A stretch of DNA of 64,000 nucleotides from Gemmatimonadota bacterium. Its GTDB lineage: Bacteria; Gemmatimonadota; Gemmatimonadetes; Longimicrobiales; Gaopeijiaceae. The notes beneath the pieces are model-generated. The model worked only from the letters and a program-made list of their open reading frames with translations. It made no database searches and was not told the DNA's origin. The DNA is taken from positions 248,001 to 312,000 of the forward strand of contig JAUIEJ010000001.1 in assembly GCA_030428885.1 (NCBI GenBank), read 5' to 3'. Of this stretch, positions 51,638 to 62,556 are shown one piece after another. Each line of letters starts with the position of its first letter. The stretch's first letter is position 1. A program made the translations under genes and the position numbers.

Positions 51638-53685
51638 GACGCGCTCGAGACGGCGGGCAGGCCGATGCGCTCCACCACGGCGGCGAAGCGCGGGTCGGTC
51701 CGGAGGTCGGCCCAATTCGGGCTCGTGCCCAGGAAGATGACCGTGCCCAGCCGCTCGTCCACCGCCCGATTGAAACAGGCGAACACCCCGTCCAGGTCGT
51801 CCAGGCCCCAGTGGTAGAGGGCTCGGTCCATGGCCAGATTCACCCGAGGCTCGTCGGCGGCGCGGCGCTCCAGGAGGTCGCCCATGGCCCGGGCCTCGTC
51901 CGTGCGCCCCAGGCGACCGTAGGCCAGGGCCCGGTGGCCGGCGCCGGCGGCGGGGTGATCGGCCAGTCCCGGGAGCCGCTCGAACTGCTCCAGGGCGCCC
52001 TCCACATCGCCGCGGCGGAGGAGGAGCCATCCCCGGGTCTCCACCGACGACCGGAAGGCGGGATCCAGGGAGAGGATGCGGTCGAGGCGGGCGTCGGCCT
52101 CGTCCAGCCGCCCTGCGGCGTGGAGGGCCACGGCCAGCGTCTGGTTGTAGGGCAGGGACAGGGGGTCCATTCCCACCGCCGTCTCCATGTGGGCCACGGC
52201 CTCGTCGAAGCGTCCCATGGCCTTCAGGAAGAGGGAGTACAGATGGTGGACCTCGGCGGCCCCCGGCGTCAGGGCCAGCGCCTCTTCGAAGCGCTCGCGG
52301 GCCCCCTCGAAGTCCCAATCGTAGAACATCTTCACCGTGGCCAGGGCGAGATGGCTCTCACCGGCGTCGTCTTCCAGTTCCAGGGCGTGGCGTGCGTAGG
52401 CCGCGGCCCGGGGGTAGGCGTCGTCGGCGGGGAGCTGGCCCAGGCTCGCCAGGAACGTGTACGCTGTGGCGAGACCGGTGAAGGGAAGGGCGCACGTGGG
52501 GTCCATCTCGGCGGCCCGCTCCATGTACTGGATGGCCAGGCGTGCGTCTCCGGGGGTCCACTTGTTCCAGTGGAATCGCCCCCGGAGGTACTCGGTGTAC
52601 GCCTCGGTGTCGTGGGTGTGGGCCCGGACCAGGAGGGACCCGGAGGCTCCGTACGCGTGGTGGTGGACCGGGGGTTCGGGCGCCAGATGGACCTGCAACC
52701 GATCGACGATGGTGCGGGCCAGTTCGTCCTGGGTCTCGAAGATGTCGTCGAGCCCCCGGTCGTAGACCTCGGAGAAGAGATGGTATCCGCTGCGGGCGTC
52801 GATGAGCTGGGCCGCGATGCGGACGCGGCCTCCCGCACGGCGCACCGACCCCTCCAGGATCGTCTCCACGCCCAGTTGGGACGCGATCTCCCGAACGTCC
52901 TGGTTGCGCCCCTTGAAGGCAAACGACGACGTGCGGGCCGTGACCCGGAGTCCCTGGACCCGGGTGAGGGCGTTGATGATCTCCTCGCTCACGCCGTCGG
53001 AGAAGAACTCGTTCTGGGGGTCGGCGCTCATGTTCACGAAGGGGAGCACCGCCACGCTCCGAGGTTCCCGTTCCCGGGCGGGGGCCAGGGCCACCTCGTC
53101 GGGGCGGCGAAGGCCTTCGCCCGCTACGGCGTGGACCTGGAGAGGGTCCCGGACGTTCTTCAGCCGGAAGCTGCCCAGGGGAAGGGTCTCGATGTCCGGC
53201 TGGTTCTTCAGCTCGTCGTGGACCTTCCCGGAGATGAGCACGGCCCCGGGGGTGGCGAGTCCCTGGATCCGAGCCGCCACGTTGACGCCGTCCCCCACCA
53301 CGCCGTTGCGATCGAAGACCACGTCGCCGGTGTGAAGCCCGATCCGGAGGGGCACCCGGGGTTCGGTGTCCAGGTCGCGCTGGATGTCCACCGCCGCCCG
53401 GACCGCTTCGATGGCGCTGGGGAACACCGAGAGGGTGCCGTCGCCGTAGAACTGGAGCACCCGGCCGCCGTGGGCCGCGATGGCGGCCTCCAGCACGGTT
53501 CGCTGGCGGTCGCGCTGGGCCCGGGCCCGGGTCTCGTCCTCCTGCATCAGGGCAGTGTAGCCCACCATGTCGGTGAACATGATGGCCGAGAGCTGACGCA
53601 CGCTCCCCACCGGGCCCGCGGGGCCCGGAGTCGGCGCACCGTCGGACGGTGCCGCGCCATGCGGAGGGGTGTCTCGTTCGATCAT
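51634..53685 (-). CDS. Class III nucleotide cyclase with TolB-like and TPR domains
   Basis: This 683-residue protein has a class III catalytic domain (about 35-190): metal-binding Asp residues in MFTDMVGYTALMQ and FYGDGTLSVF, then LRIGLHTGDVV and GDGVNVAARIQGLATPG with the transition-state Asn/Arg. The position that is Lys in many adenylate cyclases reads Gln (LQFYGDG); I have seen this in related TPR-cyclases. A TolB-N-like segment (SVAVLPFVNMSADPQNEFFS) and about eight TPR-like repeats follow. The product nucleotide cannot be told from sequence alone. ATG 53685 is used; the frame continues from a TTG at 53709. It is the first gene of the five-gene unit. Confidence 0.87.
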   Translation of the reverse strand: MIERDTPPHGAAPSDGAPTPGPAGPVGSVRQLSAIMFTDMVGYTALMQEDETRARAQRDRQRTVLEAAIAAHGGRVLQFYGDGTLSVFPSAIEAVRAAVDIQRDLDTEPRVPLRIGLHTGDVVFDRNGVVGDGVNVAARIQGLATPGAVLISGKVHDELKNQPDIETLPLGSFRLKNVRDPLQVHAVAGEGLRRPDEVALAPAREREPRSVAVLPFVNMSADPQNEFFSDGVSEEIINALTRVQGLRVTARTSSFAFKGRNQDVREIASQLGVETILEGSVRRAGGRVRIAAQLIDARSGYHLFSEVYDRGLDDIFETQDELARTIVDRLQVHLAPEPPVHHHAYGASGSLLVRAHTHDTEAYTEYLRGRFHWNKWTPGDARLAIQYMERAAEMDPTCALPFTGLATAYTFLASLGQLPADDAYPRAAAYARHALELEDDAGESHLALATVKMFYDWDFEGARERFEEALALTPGAAEVHHLYSLFLKAMGRFDEAVAHMETAVGMDPLSLPYNQTLAVALHAAGRLDEADARLDRILSLDPAFRSSVETRGWLLLRRGDVEGALEQFERLPGLADHPAAGAGHRALAYGRLGRTDEARAMGDLLERRAADEPRVNLAMDRALYHWGLDDLDGVFACFNRAVDERLGTVIFLGTSPNWADLRTDPRFAAVVERIGLPAVSSAS

Positions 53686-53923
53686 GGATCCTGGAGGAAG
53701 AACCCTCAACCCCGTCTGCGGGATTCCGTGCCGTCGAATATAGAAGGAATCGGGCCGGTGCGATGCCGCAACACCTTGCTGCGTGCCGACGACAACGGAC
53801 CGGGAATTCGGGGGCTCCCCGGGGGCGCCGATCGCCGGTCGTGGGGCGGGGGAAAGGTGCCCGCAACGGCATGGTTGTGCGGGGAACGTGTGTTTATTAA
53901 CATTTCTTCATGGATGAGGCACG

Positions 53924-53945
53924 GGCTTTGCCCCTTCGGGGAGCC
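53924..53945 (+). other. Hairpin in the presumed 5' leader of the lasso precursor
   Basis: GGCT-TTG-CCCC then TTC then GGGG-AGCC forms an eight-pair interrupted stem just downstream of the AT-rich stretch. Confidence 0.45.
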
Positions 53946-53995
53946 GAGTCGCGGATCGTGGCTCATCGGACGTTCGCCTGCGAAGGCGCGTCCAC

Positions 53996-54012
53996 TTCGC
54001 CGCAGTGGCGAA
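53996..54012 (+). other. Second 5'-leader hairpin
   Basis: TTCGCC-GCAGT-GGCGAA, 36 nt before the precursor ribosome site. A related CGCCTGCGAAGGCG palindrome lies about 15 nt upstream. Confidence 0.45.
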
Positions 54013-54061
54013 GGCTGCGCGGACCATACTGTTCGCACGTTTCGTTTCAGGAGGTGGCGTG

Positions 54062-54214
54062 ATGTACCAGAAGCCTCGACTCGAGCGCTTCGGCACGCTC
54101 CGGGAGTTGACCCTCATCGGCCTTGGTGCCGACGGAGATGGCGGTATCATGGGTTTCGGCCGCATCATCGCGTCGGTCACCGACGGCTGCGACATCGGCT
54201 GCAACCGGTCGTGA
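54062..54214 (+). CDS. Lasso peptide precursor (A)
   Basis: This is a 50-residue peptide. The leader has the RRE-recognition pattern YxxPxLxxxG (Tyr2, Pro5, Leu7, Gly11), then Leu13 and Thr17, the usual -2 Thr. With Thr17 at -2 the core would start at Ile19 and Asp26 would be position 8, giving an eight-residue ring. A start at Gly20 would put Asp26 at 7. The core (about 31-32 residues) is long; it has Gly-rich GLGADGDGG, hydrophobic GFGRIIASV, Cys43 and Cys47 in DGCDIGC, and ends in Ser50. ATG 54062 has AGGAGG 7 nt upstream; an in-frame extension to 54005 lacks leader features. B1, B2 and C follow. Confidence 0.87.
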   Translation: MYQKPRLERFGTLRELTLIGLGADGDGGIMGFGRIIASVTDGCDIGCNRS

Positions 54215-54222
54215 GGCGTCCG

Positions 54223-54248
54223 CCGGGCGGCGCTTCGGCGCCGCCCGG
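54223..54248 (+). other. Strong UUCG hairpin after the precursor gene
   Basis: CCGGGCGGCGC-TTCG-GCGCCGCCCGG is a perfect 11-bp stem 8 nt after the precursor stop. With no T tract it is more likely an mRNA stabiliser than a terminator. Confidence 0.7.
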
Positions 54249-54263
54249 CCCCTCGCTCCTCTC

Positions 54264-54297
54264 GGGTCCGCTGGCCCCCGGGCCGCGGACCCGTTTT
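54264..54297 (+). terminator. Partial terminator/attenuator between precursor and biosynthetic genes
   Basis: GGGTCCGC and GCGGACCC enclose an inner GGCCC/GGGCC stem, followed by GTTTTCTT. Partial read-through here would give more precursor than enzyme message. Confidence 0.7.
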
Positions 54298-54339
54298 CTT
54301 GTCCGGGAAGGGTCCTTCCCGCCTGCCCCGAGGGTGCGC

Positions 54340-54609
54340 ATGCTCCCCGTTCCCCATCCGTCCGTCCTCTTCCGCCCCACCTCCGAGGGCGCGGTCCTGC
54401 TCCACGGCGACGACGAGATCTACTTCGGACTCGATCCCGTGGGCACCCGGATCTGGGAACTGCTGCCCCCCCGTTCATCGGATCTGGATGCACTGGTGGA
54501 CGGCCTCCGGGAGACGTACCCCGAGGTGGATCCAGAGACCCTCCGGGGCGACGCCCAGGAGCTGCTGGATCAGTTGCGGGAAGCCGGGCTGGTAACCGAC
54601 CCCGCCTGA
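54340..54609 (+). CDS. Lasso biosynthesis B1 protein (PqqD-like RiPP recognition element)
   Basis: This 89-residue protein is the size of a stand-alone PqqD-like RRE. Typical features are HPSVLFRPTSEGAVLLHGDD at the beta wing, LDPVGTRIWELLPP, and a C-terminal helix DAQELLDQLREAGLV. RRE proteins bind the precursor leader (Tyr2/Pro5 region here) and bring it to the B2 protease. ATG 54340 has GAGGG 5 nt upstream. B2 starts 5 nt after its stop. Confidence 0.92.
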   Translation: MLPVPHPSVLFRPTSEGAVLLHGDDEIYFGLDPVGTRIWELLPPRSSDLDALVDGLRETYPEVDPETLRGDAQELLDQLREAGLVTDPA

Positions 54610-54614
54610 GCGCC

Positions 54615-55076
54615 ATGCGTCTCATCTCGCCGGTCCGCCTCGCTCGCAAGGCCACGCGGCTGGGATGGCGGGGGGCGGTGGACATGGTGATCGCCCAGCG
54701 CGCCCTCCTCCGGGCTCGCCGGGCCGTGCGCACCCGGCCTCGGGGCGGGTTGCTTCGCCCCGCGTCGGCATCGCCCGGCTCCGGGTCCACGCCCCCGGCC
54801 GTGGTGGAGGCCCTGGAGCGCCGGGCCGTGGCCGTGCGGCGGGCGTCGGACTACGGCCTGTTCGCCCCGACCTGTCTGGTCCGGGCCCTGGCCCTGGAGG
54901 AATTCGCGCGCCGCGAAGGCGCTCCGGACGCCGTGGTGCGCGTGGGGGTGCGCCACGCCGGCGGCGTCTTCGAGGCCCACGCCTGGCTGGAACTCGGCGA
55001 CCGGGTCCTGGGCGACACCCGGGAGAACGTCGACCGCTTCACCGTGCTCGAGGACTTCTCGGGCCTGCCCGCGTGA
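54615..55076 (+). CDS. Lasso biosynthesis B2 leader peptidase (transglutaminase-like fold)
   Basis: This 153-residue protein has the catalytic Cys87 in LFAPTCLVRALALEEF, His122 in FEAHAWLELGDRVLGD, and Asp134 as the probable third member. This is the Cys-His-Asp arrangement of lasso B2 cysteine proteases, which cut the leader and release the core N-terminus for ring closure. The first 70 residues are basic and helical. It lies between B1 (5 nt) and C (7 nt) in one transcript. Confidence 0.9.
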   Translation: MRLISPVRLARKATRLGWRGAVDMVIAQRALLRARRAVRTRPRGGLLRPASASPGSGSTPPAVVEALERRAVAVRRASDYGLFAPTCLVRALALEEFARREGAPDAVVRVGVRHAGGVFEAHAWLELGDRVLGDTRENVDRFTVLEDFSGLPA

Positions 55077-55083
55077 GCTCGAA

Positions 55084-56958
55084 GTGAGCGGCCTTCTGGT
55101 GGCCGTGGGCACGGCGGCGCCCGACCCCGGGGTCGGGGCGGCATGGGACCGCACCCGAGGGTTCGGCGGCGAGGTCGCCGAGCTTCGCCCCGTGGGCGAG
55201 GCGGTGATGGGTGTGGCCCGACGGGACTGGCAGGCGGCGCCGGATCTGGCCGGGCGCTCCCTCCTGGTGGACGACGGGGAGATCGTGGTGGCGGCCGACG
55301 CCACCCTCTACGGGCACGACGCCCTGGCCGACGCCCTGAATGCCCGGGGCGAGGCGCCTCGCGGACCCGACCCGGGCCACTGGATCGCCGCGGCGTGGCG
55401 GGCCTGGGGCCCCGGCCTGGTGGACCACCTCCTGGGCGACTACGCCTTCGTGCTCCTGGAGCGGCCCACGGGACGACTCCTGGCGGCCCGGGATCCCATG
55501 GGCAACCGCCCCCTCTTCCACGCCCGCCGGGGCTCGGCGCTGGCCCTGGGGTCGTCCAGCCGCGCCCTGGCGCTGTGGCGCGGGACGCCCGGCGAACTGG
55601 ACGTGGCGACTCTGGGCGCCCAGGTGGCCGGCACCCTGTTGTCCATGGGTACGTCGACGGTCTACGCCGGCGTGGAGGCGCTCCGCCCCGGGTTCCTCCT
55701 GGAGCGGGACGGGGCGCGAGTCTCGGTGCGTCGGTTCTGGGCGCCCCCCGCCGACCCCGACCCCCGGCCCCTCCCCCTGGACGAGGCCGCCGAGGCCTTC
55801 CGCGAGGTGCTCTCCCGGGCCGTGGGCGATCGCCTGGGCCACGGCGCGACCTCGGTCTGGATGAGCGGGGGATGGGACTCCACGGCGGTCTTCGGTACCG
55901 GTCGAGCTCTGGGCGCCGACCTTCGACCCGTGTCGATCCGGTACCCCCCCGACGACCCGGGCCACGAGGATCCGTGGATCGAAGCCACGGCGGGGCGATG
56001 GGACACGCCGGTGGAGTGGATCGACAGCGGCGACATTCCCCTCCTGGACGGATTGGAGCGCCGGGCCGCCGACGCCGACGAGCCGCCGGCCCACCTGTAC
56101 GAACTGTGGAACGCCGCCCTGGCCCGGGGCAGTCGACGGGTGGGGGCCCGGATCGCCCTGGACGGATGCGGCGGCGACAATCTCTTCCAGGTCTCCGACG
56201 TGGTCCTGGCCGACGCGCTCCGAAGCGGGCGGCTCCCCACGGCCGCGCGGCTGGCACGGGCGCGCCGGTCTCTGGGGTGGCGGTACCTGGCGCGCCACGC
56301 CCTCATTCCCCTGGCTCCCCCGTCCCTCCTCCGAGCCGTGGAGCAGGCCACCGGGCGAAACGTGCCCCGGCATCACATGGAGCTGGCGCGCACTCCCTGG
56401 GTGTCGGAGGGGTTCGTGCGGCGGCACGGCCTCCGGGAGCGGGACCTGACGGTGCTCCGGGAATTGTCGGCGGGATCCCACGCCCAGGCCGAAAACATGC
56501 TCTTCGTCTCCCTCCCGGCCCTGGCGTGGGGGGGCGCCTACATGCGCGGCGTCCTCCTGCGGGAAGGAGTGGAGGCTCGCTCCCCCCTCCTGGACCGACG
56601 GGTCGTGGACTTCGCCCTCCGCCGGCCGGTGAGCGACCGGGTGGCGGCCGCCGAGACCAAGATGCTTCTGCGGAAAGCGGTGGAGGGGTGGGTGCCCGAC
56701 GAAGTCCTGGCTCCCCGGAGCCATCGCACGGGGGTCACCGCCGGGTATTCGGTCCGCCGCTTTCGGGACGAACTGCCGATCCTCCTGGAGGCCGTGGAGG
56801 CCGCGCCCCTGCGGGTGGCGGAGCTCGGGATCGTGGATGCCGTCGGGTTCGGCGAAGCCGTGGAGCGGTGGCGCTCGGGCGCCGGGGATCATCTGCGCAG
56901 CGACCTGTTCGCCACCCTCCGCGTGGAGTTCTGGTTGCGAGGGCAGGACGGCGCGTGA
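55084..56958 (+). CDS. Lasso cyclase (asparagine-synthetase homologue, C protein)
   Basis: This 624-residue protein from GTG 55084 has an N-terminal Ntn-like glutaminase fold (GDYAFVLLERPTG 118-130, AARDPMGNRPLF 135-146). Residue 2 is Ser, so the Cys2 nucleophile of true asparagine synthetases is absent, as in lasso cyclases. The ATP-pyrophosphatase domain has the P-loop SGGWDS (261-266) and DGCGGDNLFQ. It adenylates the side chain of Asp in the core and closes the macrolactam with the new N-terminus. GTG has only a weak ribosome site. Confidence 0.92.
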   Translation: MSGLLVAVGTAAPDPGVGAAWDRTRGFGGEVAELRPVGEAVMGVARRDWQAAPDLAGRSLLVDDGEIVVAADATLYGHDALADALNARGEAPRGPDPGHWIAAAWRAWGPGLVDHLLGDYAFVLLERPTGRLLAARDPMGNRPLFHARRGSALALGSSSRALALWRGTPGELDVATLGAQVAGTLLSMGTSTVYAGVEALRPGFLLERDGARVSVRRFWAPPADPDPRPLPLDEAAEAFREVLSRAVGDRLGHGATSVWMSGGWDSTAVFGTGRALGADLRPVSIRYPPDDPGHEDPWIEATAGRWDTPVEWIDSGDIPLLDGLERRAADADEPPAHLYELWNAALARGSRRVGARIALDGCGGDNLFQVSDVVLADALRSGRLPTAARLARARRSLGWRYLARHALIPLAPPSLLRAVEQATGRNVPRHHMELARTPWVSEGFVRRHGLRERDLTVLRELSAGSHAQAENMLFVSLPALAWGGAYMRGVLLREGVEARSPLLDRRVVDFALRRPVSDRVAAAETKMLLRKAVEGWVPDEVLAPRSHRTGVTAGYSVRRFRDELPILLEAVEAAPLRVAELGIVDAVGFGEAVERWRSGAGDHLRSDLFATLRVEFWLRGQDGA

Positions 56959-56986
56959 TCTTCAGATGACCGCATCCGGGAGAACG

Positions 56987-57940
56987 ATGTACCGATACGA
57001 GATCTTCGGGGGCACCTTCGCCTCGGCCGTTCCCTTTCCCGAACTCGAGGGCCGTTCGGGAGACGGGGTCCCGGAGTGGACCCTGGAACGGGTGGAGTCC
57101 CTCCCCGACGACGGGGACTGGGCGAGCTGCGGGTCGTCTCCCGTGGAGGACGGGGTGGGGTCGGTGCTGCTCCGGGCTCCCGACGGCACCCTGCGGCTCG
57201 TCTACGACGACACGGGCACGTTCGAGATCTCCTCCGACGGGAGCCGCATCCGCTGGTGCGCGCCGGCCGGCGTCGACGAGATCCGGGCCCGTAAGGACGT
57301 CCTGGGTCGAGTGTTCGCCCTGGCCTTCCACTGCCGGGGCGTTCTCACGCTGCACGGAAGCGCCGTGGAGCGGCACGGCGTGGGCCTGTGTTTCCTGGCG
57401 CCGAAGTACCACGGCAAGTCCACCACCGCGGCGGCCCTGGTGGACGCCGGAGCGACCCTCCTGGCCGACGACCTGGTGGTGGTGGAGCCCCACGAGGGGG
57501 GCTTCGTCCTCCGCCCCACCTTCTCGACGCTCCACCTGTGGCCCGACGCGGCGGAGCGGGTGGGCCGGAGGGCTGCGCCCCTGGGAGACGATCCGGAGGC
57601 GGTGAAGGTCCAGGTGGTCTACGACGACGAGGCCGCGCCCCGCCACCCCGCCGGCGTGCCCCTGGACGGCATCTACCTGCTGGTGCCCACCGAGGGCGAC
57701 GATGCGGAGGTGCGGCGCTCCCCGCTGGAGTCCACGCCCGCCGCCATGGCGGTGCTGGGGCAGCTCAAGGTGGGCGACCTCCTGGGCCCCGCCGCGGTCC
57801 TGGATCTCCTGCCCACCGCGGCGGCGCTGGCGGAGCGGGTGGGGGTGCATCGCCTGGAGGTGCCCCGGGATCTGGAGCGCCTTCCGACGCTGGTCCACCG
57901 GTTGGAGGCCTGGCACCCGCCCCGAGGGTCGCAGCGGTGA
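56987..57940 (+). CDS. HPr-kinase-like kinase of the lasso cluster
   Basis: This protein of 317 residues (324 if ATG 56966 is used; ATG 56987 has the better GGGAGA site) shows TLHGSAVERHGVGLCFL, the usual lead-in of HprK-like kinases. A P-loop LAPKYHGKSTTAAALV (137-152) and Walker-B-like LLADDLVVVE with Asp161/Asp162 follow. The first Gly of the P-loop is Ala138. In paeninodin-type clusters a kinase of this family phosphorylates the C-terminal Ser of the precursor; Ser50 of this precursor is a fitting target. The ABC ATPase GTG overlaps its stop. Confidence 0.85.
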   Translation: MYRYEIFGGTFASAVPFPELEGRSGDGVPEWTLERVESLPDDGDWASCGSSPVEDGVGSVLLRAPDGTLRLVYDDTGTFEISSDGSRIRWCAPAGVDEIRARKDVLGRVFALAFHCRGVLTLHGSAVERHGVGLCFLAPKYHGKSTTAAALVDAGATLLADDLVVVEPHEGGFVLRPTFSTLHLWPDAAERVGRRAAPLGDDPEAVKVQVVYDDEAAPRHPAGVPLDGIYLLVPTEGDDAEVRRSPLESTPAAMAVLGQLKVGDLLGPAAVLDLLPTAAALAERVGVHRLEVPRDLERLPTLVHRLEAWHPPRGSQR

Positions 57941-58965
57941 CCGTGTCCGCGGCGGCGGCCCCCGCGGTGCGGGTCGAAGGCGTCACCAAACGCTTTCCCC
58001 GGCGCCGGCCCCTCTCCGAGATCGTCCGGGCTCCCTTCGCTCGGCCGAAACAGGACGTGCTCCGGGGCGTGTCGCTGGAAGTACGGGAGGGGGAGTTCTT
58101 CGGGTTGCTGGGCCCGAACGGGGCCGGAAAGACCACGCTGTTCAAGATCCTGGCGACCCTGGTCCTGGCCGACGCCGGCGAGGTGCGGGTCGACGGCATC
58201 GATCCCGGTCGGGACCCCGACGGAGTGAAGGCCCGTCTGACCCCGGTGATCGCCGACGAACGCAGCCTCTACTGGCGCCTCACCGGCCGGGAGAACCTGC
58301 GCCTCTACGCGGCCCTGTACGGGCTCCGGGGCACGGAGCGGGACGACGCGGTGGCTCGGATGCTGGCCGCGGTGGAACTGGAGGAGGCCGCCGACCGCAT
58401 GGCCGGCACCTACTCGTCGGGAATGAAGCAGCGACTCCTCATCGCCCGCGCGCTCCTGTCCCGACCCAAGGTGCTGCTCCTGGACGAGCCCACCCGGAGC
58501 CTGGACCCGGTGGGGGCCCGGGCGTTCCGGCGGTTCCTGCGCTCGGAGCTGGTGGACCGACAGGGGTGCACCGTGCTCCTGGCGACCCACGACGCCGACG
58601 AGGCCTTCGAGCTCTGCGACCGCCTCGCCGTCCTGGATCGGGGTAGGGTGGTGGCCGAGGGCACGGCCCGGGACCTGGCGGCTCTGGTGGACGAACACCG
58701 TGTGCGCATCGTGGTGGCCGACCACCACGCCGCCGACGCCCGTCGGTTCCTCGACGGACGGGGACTGGAGGCCCGGGTGGAGGACGTGCGTCCCGAGGAG
58801 GGCTGGACGGCCCTGCGCACCTCGGTGGAGGGCGGGGCGGCGGCGGGGGCCGCGCTCCTGGCCGATCTCGTGGGGGCCGGAATCACCGTGGGGGAACTGG
58901 CCCCCGTGGCGGTGCCCCTGGCCGACATCATCGAGACCCTGACCGAGGGGGGGCGCCGTGGGTGA
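57937..58965 (+). CDS. ABC transporter ATP-binding protein (ABC-2 exporter)
   Basis: This 342-residue protein from GTG 57937 (GTGA with the kinase stop) has Walker A GPNGAGKT (59-66), a Q-loop region VIADERSLYWRLTGRENL, signature YSSGMKQRLLIARALL, Walker B VLLLDEPTRSLDPVGARA and H-loop ATHDADEAFELCDRL. A C-terminal domain of about 100 residues is as in NodI/drug-resistance ATPases. It powers export of the mature lasso peptide with the permease that follows, and gives producer immunity. This split system replaces the one-piece McjD-type exporter. Confidence 0.9.
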   Translation: MTVSAAAAPAVRVEGVTKRFPRRRPLSEIVRAPFARPKQDVLRGVSLEVREGEFFGLLGPNGAGKTTLFKILATLVLADAGEVRVDGIDPGRDPDGVKARLTPVIADERSLYWRLTGRENLRLYAALYGLRGTERDDAVARMLAAVELEEAADRMAGTYSSGMKQRLLIARALLSRPKVLLLDEPTRSLDPVGARAFRRFLRSELVDRQGCTVLLATHDADEAFELCDRLAVLDRGRVVAEGTARDLAALVDEHRVRIVVADHHAADARRFLDGRGLEARVEDVRPEEGWTALRTSVEGGAAAGAALLADLVGAGITVGELAPVAVPLADIIETLTEGGRRG

Positions 58966-59758
58966 GATCCTGGCCCTCACCTGGGCCCAGTGGCGCACCA
59001 ACCTCTCGTACCGGGTGCGCATGGTCTACACGCTGGTGGGCGTCGTGGTCTCGGTGGTGCCCCTCTTCTTCGTGGCGGGGGCGGTGCAGCCCGTCATGGC
59101 CGACGCCATCGCGGCCGAGGGCGGACAGGCGTTCGGGTTCCTCCTGGTGGGGTTGGCGGCCGTGGGCATGGTGACGGTGGCCGTGGCCACCCTGCCCCGG
59201 GCCATCGGCGGTGGCGTGGGAACCGGCGTGTTGGAGGCGCTCCTCGCCACCCCCGCGAGCCTTCCCCGGCTTCTGGCCGGGCTCAGTACGTTCGACATGG
59301 CCTTCGCCCTGGTCCGGACGGTGGTGACCCTGGGGATCGGGTGGGCCCTCGGGGCGAATCTCCAGGTCGGGGGCGTCGTCCCCGGGCTCCTGATCCTGAT
59401 CCTCATCACCCTGGCCCACGTGCCCTTCGCCCTCATGGCGTCGGCTCTGGTCCTGGCGTTCCGCACCACGGGGCCCCTGCCCCAGGGCGTCCTCCTCATC
59501 TCCACCCTCCTGGGGGGGGCCTACTACCCCACCCACGTGATCCCGTCCTGGCTGGAATCCGTATCGACGTTCGTGCCCCTGACCTACGGCCTCCGGGCGC
59601 TGCGGCACGTGCTCCTGGAGGGCCTCCCCCTGTCGGCGGTCTTTCCCGATCTCCTGGCGTTGGTGGGGTCGGGACTGGGACTCCTCATCGCCGGCAGCGC
59701 CTGCATGGCCCTGGCGCTCCGCTACGCCCGGCGCAACGGGACCCTCGCCCAGTACTGA
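58958..59758 (+). CDS. ABC-2 type permease
   Basis: This 266-residue protein has six hydrophobic segments, including VYTLVGVVVSVVPLFFVAGA, FLLVGLAAVGMVTVAVATL and VVPGLLILILITLAHVPFAL. The region ISTLLGGAYYPTHVIPSWLE, followed by PLTYGLRALRHVLLEGLPLS, is typical of ABC-2 permeases such as NodJ. The GTG start 58958 overlaps the ATPase gene by 8 nt. It is the membrane partner of the upstream ATPase. Confidence 0.9.
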   Translation: MGEILALTWAQWRTNLSYRVRMVYTLVGVVVSVVPLFFVAGAVQPVMADAIAAEGGQAFGFLLVGLAAVGMVTVAVATLPRAIGGGVGTGVLEALLATPASLPRLLAGLSTFDMAFALVRTVVTLGIGWALGANLQVGGVVPGLLILILITLAHVPFALMASALVLAFRTTGPLPQGVLLISTLLGGAYYPTHVIPSWLESVSTFVPLTYGLRALRHVLLEGLPLSAVFPDLLALVGSGLGLLIAGSACMALALRYARRNGTLAQY

Positions 59759-59760
59759 CG

Positions 59761-60951
59761 GTGATCCTCCATCGACTTCCCCCGGAGGCCCGGCTCCTCT
59801 TCGCCGCCACCCGGGAGCCCACCTGGGATCCGTCCGAGGTCCGTCGACTCGCGTCGCCCGGCTTGAATTGGGCCGGAGTGCGGGCCCTGGCGACCCAGGA
59901 GCGCCTCCTCACGGTGCTGTGGCCGCGGCTTCGGGAGGCGGGAGTCGAGGTGCCCGAACCCCACGGGCAGGGCTTCCACATGCAGTCCTCCGTCGCCGAG
60001 TTCCGGCTCGGGTTCGCCGAACTCGTGCTTCGGCAGATCGCCGCCGAAGCGCACCGGCTCGACGTGGAGTTGCTCCTTCTCAAGGGCGCCGCCCTGGCCC
60101 TCACCGTGTACGGGGCCTTTCGGGATCGTCCCATGGGCGACCTCGACATCCTGGTCCGGCCCCGGCAGGCCCGCCGTCTGTGGGATCGGCTGCGGGAGGA
60201 CGGATGGGGCCTGGAGTACGAGTCGGGGGAGGAGTTCTACCGGGAGCACCACCACCTCCCGCCCCTGGTCCGAGGAGGGGGATCGGGCGTCGTGTTGGAG
60301 ATCCACCGGGCGCTGCTCCCCCCCCGGGGGCCCTTCCCGGAGGAGGCCGACGTCTCGTGGGAGCACGCCCGCCGCCTGGAACTGGACGAGGGCTCCGTGC
60401 GGGTCATGGCTCCCGAGGATCAGTTGATCCACCTGGCCATCCACTTCGCCTGGTCCCACGGCATGGTCCGGGGGCTGTCCCGGACGGTGCGGGACGTGGC
60501 CGCCGTGTGCGCCTCGACGCCGCCCGATTGGGACGTCTTCTTCCGGCGGGTGCGGGAGCACCGGGCCGGAACCTGCGCCTACTGGACCCTCCGCCTGGCT
60601 CGAAACCTGGGGGACGCGGCCGTGCCCGACCGGGTCCTGGAGGCGCTGGCTCCGTCCCGGCCCCGGTGGATCCTGGACCGCCTGGAGCGGGCGTACGTGG
60701 AAGCGGGTCTGTTCCGGTCCTGTCCGTCCCGGCGACTGCTTCGCGGCCTGTGGAGCCTGGGGGTGGCGCCCCGGGCCTCGGGACACGGCGACCATCGACC
60801 GTGGGAGGCCGACGACGAGTTCATCGACGACGTGGAACTCGCCCACCGGGAACGCACGGGGTGGGTCGACCGCCTGGGGCGGGTGCCGGCCAGCGTAGGC
60901 TTCCTGGGGCGAAGCGTGACCGGGGCCCTGGGGCGGGAACGCGGGGGGTGA
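59761..60951 (+). CDS. Nucleotidyltransferase-family protein of the lasso cluster
   Basis: This 396-residue protein from GTG 59761 (2 nt after the permease stop) has LLLLKGAALALTVYG (104-118) and the metal-binding GDLDILVRP with Asp127/Asp129. ALLPPRGPFPEEADVSWEHA and VRVMAPEDQLIHLAIHFAWS follow. This is the uncharacterised nucleotidyltransferase (NTP_transf_5) family, recurrent in RiPP clusters, including lasso clusters with kinases. It may add a nucleotide or further phosphate to the peptide, or act in immunity; no activity can be fixed from sequence. Confidence 0.85.
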   Translation: MILHRLPPEARLLFAATREPTWDPSEVRRLASPGLNWAGVRALATQERLLTVLWPRLREAGVEVPEPHGQGFHMQSSVAEFRLGFAELVLRQIAAEAHRLDVELLLLKGAALALTVYGAFRDRPMGDLDILVRPRQARRLWDRLREDGWGLEYESGEEFYREHHHLPPLVRGGGSGVVLEIHRALLPPRGPFPEEADVSWEHARRLELDEGSVRVMAPEDQLIHLAIHFAWSHGMVRGLSRTVRDVAAVCASTPPDWDVFFRRVREHRAGTCAYWTLRLARNLGDAAVPDRVLEALAPSRPRWILDRLERAYVEAGLFRSCPSRRLLRGLWSLGVAPRASGHGDHRPWEADDEFIDDVELAHRERTGWVDRLGRVPASVGFLGRSVTGALGRERGG

Positions 60952-60953
60952 GC

Positions 60954-60979
60954 GGGGGGCCGGCGGTCGCCGACCCCCC
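60954..60979. terminator. Bidirectional hairpin ending the lasso operon
   Basis: GGGGGG ... GGCG-GT-CGCC ... CCCCCC lies between the stops of the convergent nucleotidyltransferase and H1-like genes. Confidence 0.6.
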
Positions 60980-60984
60980 TCGCC

Positions 60985-61464
60985 TCACTTGCGGGCGGCC
61001 TTCTTCGCCGGAGCCTTCTTCACGGCCTTCTTCACGGCCTTCTTGGCCGGGGCCTTTTTCGCGGCCTTCTTGGCCGGAGCCTTCTTCTTCGCAGCCTTCT
61101 TCGGCGCGGCCTTCCGAGCCGTGGCCTTCTTCACGGTCGTCTTGCGGGCGGCCTTCTTCGCCGTGGCCTTCTTCGCCGGAGCCTTCTTGGCGGTGGCCTT
61201 CTTCGCCGGGGCCTTCTTCTTGGCGGCAGCCTTCTTCACGGTCTTCTTGGCGGTCGCCTTCTTGGCCGCGGCCTTCTTCACGGTCTTCTTGGCGGTCGCC
61301 TTCTTGGCGGCGGCTTTCTTCACGGTCTTCCTGGCCGGGGCCTTCCGGGCGGTGGCCTTCTTCACGGTCTTCTTCGCCGGGGCCTTCTTCTTGGCGGCGG
61401 CTTTTTTGGCCGGGGCCTTTTTCTTGGCGGCGGCCTTCTTCGCCGCCGGCTTCTTCGCTGCCAT
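60985..61464 (-). CDS. Histone-H1-like Lys/Ala-rich protein
   Basis: This 159-residue protein consists almost entirely of Lys, Ala, Pro, Thr, Val and Arg in repeats of the type [12 protein letters not shown] and KTVKKA, with no acidic residue and no globular domain. This is the composition of bacterial histone-H1-like (AlgP/Hc1-tail) nucleoid proteins, which coat and compact DNA. ATG 61464 has GGAGGA upstream; the frame upstream of it lacks this composition and is not coding. The DNA is a degenerate tandem repeat because of the protein composition. Confidence 0.85.
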
Positions 61465-61535
61465 CGTACCGTTCCTCCGGAGGGGGTTGGGGCGGGAACC
61501 CGCATGTCGACGCCGAAAGATACGATGGCAGGGCC

Positions 61536-61551
61536 ACCGTTGCGCAACGGT
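61536..61551. promoter_or_regulatory. Perfect 16-nt palindrome, operator candidate
   Basis: ACCGTTGCGCAACGGT is a perfect palindrome overlapping the possible -35 of the H1-like gene. It is a candidate repressor site. Confidence 0.5.
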
Positions 61552-61570
61552 TTCGTGCAACACGGCCCCG

Positions 61571-61606
61571 CATGTCGTGGGGTCGGGGGCCCTATACCAC
61601 GACATG
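61571..61606. repeat. Inverted repeat CATGTCGTGG / CCACGACATG
   Basis: This is a perfect 10-bp inverted repeat with a 16-nt spacer. It could be a dimeric regulator site or a hairpin. Confidence 0.6.
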
Positions 61607-61776
61607 TCGGGGAGGATTCGCCTCGTTCCCCGGGCCCGTCGGGGGGGTGCTGGAGAGTGGTGGGCCCGGGAGGCCGCCGGTGCTATCGTGAAGGGCGTAC
61701 CGGTGCCGGACGCCCCCGGGCATCCGGTGCCAAATGGTGCTCCTGCAATGCATTGGAACGTTCTGCCCACCCGGCC

Positions 61777-62556
61777 ATGGCCCGCGAACGGACCGCCGAC
61801 GAGATCCTCGACCTCCTCCGCGACGAAGGCGCCCGGCGCCTCCGTCGGGTCGTGCTCCGGGACAACCGGAGCACCATCTGGTCGCTCACGCAGGGCGGCA
61901 CCGTGCTCAACCTCCATTCGGCCTACCGATTGGCGCCGCCGTCGATCCTCCGTGCGTTTGCGCGTCTCGTGCGGGAGGCCCGCCGACGTTCCCCGGCCTA
62001 CCGGGAGGCCCGACAGGAGGTGGCCGACTGGCCCGGACTGGCCCCGGAGCTGAACCGGCTGCAGCGGCGGCACCGGCGGGTTCGGGCGCCCCATCGGCGG
62101 GGACCCGGGGTGGGTCCGTGCTGCGCCACGCCGGCTCAACGGGTCTACCTCCGACGTCTCTACCGGTACCTGAACGCCACCCGCTTCGGAGGGCGCCTAC
62201 CCCGCACGATTCCCGTGCGCCTGTCCAATCGGTTCTCGACCCGGTTGGGCCAGATGGTGCCGGGGGTGGTGGACGGTCGCCCGGCCGTGCTGGAGATCGC
62301 CCTCAACGTCGATCTTCTCTTGAAAGGCAACGGGCGGCAGCGCCTGGATACGCTTCTCCACGAGATGGCCCACGCGGCGGACTATCTGTTCGACGGCGCG
62401 GTGGGACACGGGGAGAGCTGGCGCCGCTGGGCCCGCAGGGTGGGGTGCGACGTGCGAGCGACCTGCGACGCGCCCATCCGGCGGCGGCGACGGGGCGCCC
62501 GGACCGTGTTCCGGGTGCCGCCACTGCCCCGGGGGTGGCGAGCCCGGGCGGCGTGA
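61777..62556 (+). CDS. SprT-like zinc metalloprotein
   Basis: The 259-residue protein has the zinc site HEMAH at residues 195-199 and a third ligand His211 in [15 protein letters not shown], in the order seen in SprT-like domains. [20 protein letters not shown] (from about 128) is the typical start of that domain. The first 110 residues are very basic (Arg-rich). SprT-like domains act on DNA-protein crosslinks in eukaryotes; the bacterial role is unclear. ATG 61777 is preferred because upstream codons look non-coding. Confidence 0.83.

What the first reader, a model, noticed from the sequence alone, without database searches (positions are those of the whole stretch)
54062..60951. Lasso peptide cluster with kinase, nucleotidyltransferase and split exporter
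Eight plus-strand genes read A-B1-B2-C-kinase-ATPase-permease-nucleotidyltransferase. After the gap that follows A, spacers are at most 28 nt or the genes overlap. The A/B1/B2/C assignment rests on the YxxPxLxxxG leader, PqqD-like RRE, Cys-His protease and a Ser2, SGGWDS Asn-synthetase homologue. Known lasso tailoring by HPr-kinase-like enzymes (paeninodin type) was described mainly in Firmicutes and Proteobacteria. The combination with a nucleotidyltransferase and an ABC-2 exporter in a probable gemmatimonadote would be a new member, and a doubly tailored product is possible.
Basis: partly seen in the sequence, partly recalled or inferred. Interest (0 to 1): 0.87.

Follow-up and report, generated by a model that had tools for sequence, protein, structure and literature searches.

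The report
Phospho-lasso peptide cluster in Gemmatimonadota
A Gemmatimonadota bacterium carries a complete gene set for a knotted 'lasso' peptide whose last serine is probably phosphorylated and then capped by a second enzyme; this recipe is already known from Bacillus, but here it is widespread in another phylum and predicts unusually long peptides.

Summary
Window 54062-60951 is a complete lasso peptide cluster: precursor A, RRE B1, protease B2, cyclase C, HprK-like kinase, DrrA/DrrB-type exporter and PF14907 nucleotidyltransferase. Genus relatives keep all eight genes in the same order, and all eight are under purifying selection (dN/dS 0.10-0.40). The likely product is a 32-residue lasso, Ile1-Asp8 ring, with two tail Cys and a C-terminal Ser that the kinase phosphorylates and the nucleotidyltransferase modifies further. 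Terminal Ser occurs in 21 of 24 precursors of kinase-plus-exporter clusters and in 0 of 19 from kinase-less clusters. The kinase-plus-nucleotidyltransferase pair is not new: pseudomycoidin (Bacillus) and Butyrivibrio clusters have it. In Gemmatimonadota it is common. The product is unproven.

The parts
53986..54039 (+). two tandem hairpins in the 5' leader of gene A: cttcgccg-CAG-tggcgaag and gcggac-CATACT-gttcgc, the second ending about 25 nt before the ATG (start coordinate of the element approximate)
   Evidence: tandem hairpins at this spacing upstream of 19 of 23 kinase-plus-exporter precursors, against 4.3% of random positions and 10% of SD-preceded starts; stem sequences differ, position is kept
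54062..54214 (+). A, lasso precursor, 50 aa: leader MYQKPRLERFGTLRELTL, predicted core IGLGADGDGGIMGFGRIIASVTDGCDIGCNRS
   Evidence: NF033521 24.8 bits; homologues in about 20 clusters; dN/dS 0.14-0.18
54222..54249 (+). 12-bp GC-rich hairpin with TTCG loop directly after the A stop codon
   Evidence: z -2.9 for the 85-nt stretch; such a hairpin after A in 18 of 23 relatives against 0.5% of random positions
54340..54609 (+). B1, RiPP recognition element (PqqD-like)
   Evidence: PF05402 66.3 bits; TbiB1 structure E 2.6e-6
54615..55076 (+). B2, leader peptidase, transglutaminase-like, Cys and His conserved (CLVRA, EAHAW)
   Evidence: NF033537 64.9 bits, cut-off 33; alignment
55084..56958 (+). C, macrolactam synthetase (Asn-synthetase homologue; GTG start, Ser2, SGGWDS)
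   Evidence: PF00733 95 bits, PF13537 59.6 bits; 64-69% identical in genus relatives
56966..57940 (+). K, HprK-like kinase; H130, K151, D168, D169 invariant
57937..58965 (+). exporter ATPase, DrrA-like
   Evidence: TIGR01188 225 bits (below its cut-off), PF00005 106 bits
58958..59758 (+). exporter permease, ABC-2 / DrrB-like
   Evidence: PF01061 61 bits
59761..60951 (+). NT, nucleotidyltransferase PF14907; K108, G109, R123, D127, D129, H182 and H228 invariant
   Evidence: PF14907 138.8 bits; model pLDDT 87; MenT1 Z 13.4, ANT(2'')-Ia Z 11.9

Best explanation
It is a phosphorylated lasso peptide cluster of the paeninodin/pseudomycoidin type. A is translated in excess from a short mRNA flanked by hairpins (inferred). 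[quoted passage not shown] B1 binds the YxxPxL leader and B2 cuts one residue after the conserved Thr, between L18 and I19 (inferred from the Thr at -2 rule). C joins the Ile1 amine of the core to the Asp8 side chain, giving an 8-residue ring threaded by a 24-residue loop and tail (inferred). Cys25 and Cys29 of the core may form a small disulfide ring in the tail. The nucleotidyltransferase acts on the phosphorylated Ser, adding a nucleotidyl group or, as reported for PsmN, a sugar. The DrrAB-like pair exports the product. Shown here: the genes, their homology, conservation, selection and intact catalytic residues. All chemical steps are inferred from relatives.
For: All core lasso proteins by profile. 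Gene content and order kept in genus relatives L038 and L004 and, with rearrangements, across about 20 clusters. All genes under purifying selection. With the Thr at -2, Asp falls at core position 8 (in a few at 9) in nearly all relatives. Terminal Ser in 21 of 24 precursors of kinase-plus-exporter clusters although core length varies from 24 to 44 and core sequences barely align; 0 of 19 in kinase-less clusters. H-K-D-D of HprK invariant and aligned with an HprK structure. Kinase and nucleotidyltransferase co-occur: 52 of 59 kinase loci against 2 of 34 kinase-less loci. The DrrB-type permease never occurs without the kinase (21 of 21). The nucleotidyltransferase model has the fold of known nucleotidyltransferases with intact DxD.
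Against: No product has been seen. The kinases of kinase-plus-exporter clusters form essentially one lineage, so the Ser association is one lineage contrast rather than many independent events; the Fisher values ignore this. Three of the 24 precursors end SR or SP. The kinase is far below family cut-offs (35 of 200 bits). Precursors in the survey were chosen partly by having D/E at core 7-9, so the ring statistic is partly circular. Which group the nucleotidyltransferase adds is not determined by any computation here.
Confidence: 0.85

Rival explanations
1. The nucleotidyltransferase transfers a nucleotide (for example AMP) to the phospho-Ser or to another residue, and no sugar is involved. 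This is a rival only for the last step.
For: The predicted fold is closest to MenT1, ANT(2'')-Ia and LnuA, which transfer nucleotides, with intact K-G, DxD and E180. For pseudomycoidin the review says that nucleotidylation followed by a host glycosyltransferase is not excluded (PMC9266682).
Against: The only studied enzyme of this annotation, PsmN, gave hexose masses in vivo (PMC9266682, PMC8498205). Fold does not fix the donor.
Confidence: 0.45
2. Kinase and nucleotidyltransferase act as self-protection or export tags on the peptide rather than as parts of the active product.
For: Lasso acetylation is a self-resistance mechanism in triculamin and lariocidin (PMC13352647); no other immunity gene is seen in the cluster; the DrrB-type exporter was found only in kinase-bearing clusters.
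Against: No direct evidence; no target or activity is known for either form, so active and inactive forms cannot be told apart.
Confidence: 0.2
3. The product is a linear or otherwise processed phosphopeptide (LPP-like) and the cyclase is not productive.
For: LPP clusters share RRE, HprK kinase and NTP transferase without a cyclase (PMC13381572); cyclase-less relatives exist here (L111).
Against: C is intact and under purifying selection (dN/dS 0.24-0.26), and Asp8 is conserved in relatives with C, while L111, which lacks C, also lacks the acceptor.
Confidence: 0.05
4. Chance or decayed cluster without function.
For: None beyond lack of expression data.
Against: dN/dS 0.10-0.40 in all eight genes and conserved synteny.
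Confidence: 0.01

Closest known systems
Pseudomycoidin (psm, Bacillus pseudomycoides DSM 12442)
   Same: Lasso genes plus HprK-like kinase plus nucleotidyltransferase; Ser at the C terminus (PMC9266682, PMC8498205).
   Different: Other phylum; separate DrrA/DrrB-type ATPase and permease here; core 32 aa with a tail Cys pair; no product shown.
Paeninodin (Paenibacillus dendritiformis) and ThcoK/SyanK systems
   Same: H-K-D-D kinase and C-terminal Ser as the phosphate acceptor (PMC9266682).
   Different: No nucleotidyltransferase described for paeninodin itself; shorter core without a Cys pair (from memory).
Pandonodin (Pandoraea), class IV lasso
   Same: Very long core (33 aa) with a disulfide within the tail (PMC13352647).
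   Different: No kinase or nucleotidyltransferase: known class IV clusters carry no such tailoring genes (PMC9266682); here class IV is only predicted.
LPP family (linear polyphosphorylated peptides, Bacillota)
   Same: RRE, HprK kinase, NTP transferase and a YxxP leader (PMC13381572).
   Different: LPPs use an SpI peptidase and lack a cyclase; this cluster has B2 and C.
Butyrivibrio fibrisolvens lasso clusters
   Same: Nucleotidyltransferase and HPr kinase inside lasso clusters (PMC7533575).
   Different: Firmicutes; accompanied by glycosyltransferase and sensor/regulator genes absent here.

Membership tests
Lasso peptide biosynthetic cluster | Precursor with YxxPxL leader and Thr at -2 | tested here: met
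   NF033521 above cut-off; Thr followed by one residue in homologues
Lasso peptide biosynthetic cluster | RRE (B1) and transglutaminase-like peptidase (B2) | tested here: met
   PF05402, TbiB1 match, NF033537 above cut-off
Lasso peptide biosynthetic cluster | Asn-synthetase-like macrolactam synthetase (C) | tested here: met
   PF00733 and PF13537 above cut-off; no lasso-cyclase cut-off of NCBIfam is reached
Lasso peptide biosynthetic cluster | Asp or Glu at core position 7-9 | tested here: met
   Asp8 in window and sisters
Lasso peptide biosynthetic cluster | Threaded macrolactam product | not testable with these tools
   needs expression and mass spectrometry or NMR
Paeninodin-type phosphorylated lasso peptides | HprK-like kinase with H-K-D-D | tested here: met
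   H130, K151, D168, D169 invariant in 30 homologues
Paeninodin-type phosphorylated lasso peptides | C-terminal Ser in the precursor | tested here: met
   Ser50; 21 of 24 in the group
Pseudomycoidin-type (kinase plus nucleotidyltransferase) | Nucleotidyltransferase gene in the cluster | tested here: met
   PF14907 138.8 bits; catalytic DxD intact. Sequence homology to PsmN itself was not tested
Pseudomycoidin-type (kinase plus nucleotidyltransferase) | Hexose on the phospho-Ser | not testable with these tools
   needs mass spectrometry
Class IV lasso peptide | Disulfide within the tail | not testable with these tools
   two tail Cys at core 25 and 29, conserved in sisters; bond not shown
LPP family | SpI-type leader peptidase and no cyclase | tested here: not met
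   B2 and C are present and no SpI lies among the eight genes

The most novel reading that the evidence does not exclude
Gemmatimonadota hold a distinct lasso lineage (kinase and DrrAB-type exporter together, mostly with the nucleotidyltransferase) that makes the longest lasso peptides known, 24-44 residues, many with tail disulfides, and with a phosphate-linked nucleotidyl or glycosyl cap on the last Ser, expressed from an mRNA in which the precursor gene is bracketed by hairpins conserved in position and structure.
Probability: 0.3. Interest if true: 0.6.

Novelty: new member of a known kind. Interest (0 to 1): 0.38.

Why it matters
It extends C-terminally phosphorylated, nucleotidyltransferase-tailored lasso peptides to Gemmatimonadota, where lasso protease genes occur in 119 of 395 sampled genomes. 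The conserved terminal Ser, the long cores and the kinase-nucleotidyltransferase coupling give a defined set of substrates for settling what PF14907 enzymes add, which the pseudomycoidin work left open.

Tried and rejected
Rfam on 53500-61200: nothing above gathering; one sub-threshold snoRNA match, taken as chance. Sigma-70 promoter scan: none found. MAFFT alignment of the 5' hairpin regions was too gappy for covariation counts, so I used background hairpin rates instead; counting covariation on stems that were found because they pair would have been circular. My first hairpin scan rejected stems with two G-U pairs and missed L104/L107; corrected. Sequence search of the nucleotidyltransferase against solved structures gave only meaningless weak hits; the fold search was needed. 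Three primary papers (Zyubko 2019, Zhu 2016, Tietz 2017) are not held, so pseudomycoidin and paeninodin facts come from reviews. Searches for prior work on lasso peptides in Gemmatimonadota found no dedicated study. LPP membership rejected because B2 and C are present.

Full report
Observation. A is 54062-54214 (50 aa), B1 54340-54609, B2 54615-55076, C 55084-56958 (GTG start, Ser2), kinase 56966-57940, ATPase 57937-58965, permease 58958-59758, nucleotidyltransferase 59761-60951. After the 125-nt gap behind A, spacers are 7 nt or less, or the genes overlap. B1's best solved relative is the lasso RRE TbiB1. The kinase is weak by profile but aligns with HPr kinase structures across the catalytic core.

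Host. The window lies in G000:C2. A same-genus genome (G003, whose 10,197-bp contig corresponds to L004) is titled Longimicrobiales bacterium, so the host is a gemmatimonadote.

Conservation. It is conserved: 84-85% identical over the aligned part in the two sister genomes, with dN/dS 0.14-0.18, and dN/dS is 0.10-0.40 for all eight genes. Same-genus L038 and L004 carry all eight genes in the same order. More distant Gemmatimonadota, and one Pirellulaceae contig that ends inside the kinase gene (L006), carry recognisable versions with some rearrangement.

Survey. The lasso B2 family is found in 119 of 395 Gemmatimonadota genomes sampled. I fetched 80 neighbourhoods, annotated them with profiles built here and listed precursors. 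Three kinds appear: clusters with kinase plus DrrB-type permease (the window's kind), clusters with kinase but no such permease, and clusters without kinase. Kinase and nucleotidyltransferase go together (52 of 59 kinase loci against 2 of 34 others), and the DrrB-type permease was never seen without the kinase (21 of 21). So the window's combination is a common architecture in this phylum rather than an oddity.

Core and tailoring site. With the Thr at -2 rule, the core is IGLGADGDGGIMGFGRIIASVTDGCDIGCNRS (32 aa) with Asp8 as ring acceptor; Asp at 8 (or 9) recurs in the relatives. Precursors of the window's kind end in Ser in 21 of 24 cases, and the exceptions end SR or SP; none of 19 precursors from kinase-less clusters does. 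Since the cores vary from 24 to 44 residues and are otherwise dissimilar, a fixed last residue points to a constraint at the C terminus. Caveat: the kinases of this kind form essentially one lineage (100/95 support), so the contrast is not many independent events. Paeninodin-type kinases phosphorylate exactly this residue, on the precursor rather than on the threaded peptide (PMC9266682). The H-K-D-D residues are invariant here (H130, K151, D168, D169).

Nucleotidyltransferase. Twenty-six homologues share invariant K108, G109, R123, D127, D129, H182 and H228, and all match PF14907. The AlphaFold2 model (pLDDT 87) matches MenT1 (Z 13.4), ANT(2'')-Ia (Z 11.9) and LnuA (Z 10.5), so the enzyme has a true nucleotidyltransferase fold with an intact DxD. 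The donor and acceptor cannot be read from this. PsmN, the studied enzyme with the same annotation, led to hexose on the phospho-Ser, with nucleotidylation not excluded (PMC9266682). I did not compare the PsmN sequence itself.

Flanking hairpins. Two tandem hairpins lie just upstream of A, the second ending about 25 nt before the ATG. The same arrangement, with different stem sequences, precedes 19 of 23 precursors of this kind, against 4% of random positions and 10% of SD-preceded starts. A strong hairpin follows the A stop in 18 of 23 against 0.5% of random positions. I infer that they protect or delimit a short abundant A mRNA, which would give the precursor excess that a lasso pathway needs. 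This is inference; a DNA-binding site is less likely because sequence is not kept.

Comparison. The works-like question and the membership question have the same answer: paeninodin/pseudomycoidin-type lasso cluster. Differences are the phylum, the split DrrAB-like exporter (related Bacillota LPP clusters use an MsbA-like pump, PMC13381572), and long cores with tail Cys pairs that resemble class IV pandonodin (33 aa, the longest tail known according to PMC13352647). Several relatives would exceed that length: 41 aa in L113 and L118, 44 aa in L119. No product has been seen, so these lengths are predictions.

Verdict. Confirmed observation, mostly correct interpretation, but the novelty claim (kinase plus nucleotidyltransferase) is already known. 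New member of a known kind, with testable additions.

Noticed in passing
L123 6615-10096, L106 4922-9976, L122, L125, L127, L128: Cyclase-less cassettes kinase-B1-B2-nucleotidyltransferase. In four of them (L106, L122, L123, L125) short precursors with a lasso-like leader were found (for example MRKTFVAPRLVEEATLTRLTL + LPQTSRLIT; several tandem copies in L123); short cores, most without a ring acceptor. Possibly a linear phospho-RiPP class related to LPP but with the B2 protease.
   Followed up: partly
L111 3594-6768: A-B1-B2-kinase-nucleotidyltransferase without cyclase; precursor MYQKPKLERYGSFRDLTR + NGFQTSLSCYSCS keeps the C-terminal Ser but has no Asp/Glu acceptor: a natural contrast to the window.
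   Followed up: partly
L047, L050, L060, L082, L092, L094, L105, L108: Second type of kinase-bearing lasso cluster (no DrrB-type permease). Precursors often end in K/R-T followed by S, R, A or G, or in T, so the phosphate acceptor may differ.
   Followed up: no
L118 15176 and 15698; L039 6109 and 12559: Clusters with two precursors each; the L118 cores (41 aa) end in SR and carry a Cys in the ring and one in the tail.
   Followed up: no
L006: A Pirellulaceae (Planctomycetota) contig carries a B1-B2-C-A-kinase cluster with an IGMGADGDGG core start nearly identical to the window's; transfer or mis-binning not resolved.
   Followed up: no
window 60985-62139, minus strand: Lysine/alanine-rich repeat ORF ([12 protein letters not shown], histone H1-like) directly downstream of the cluster.
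   Followed up: no
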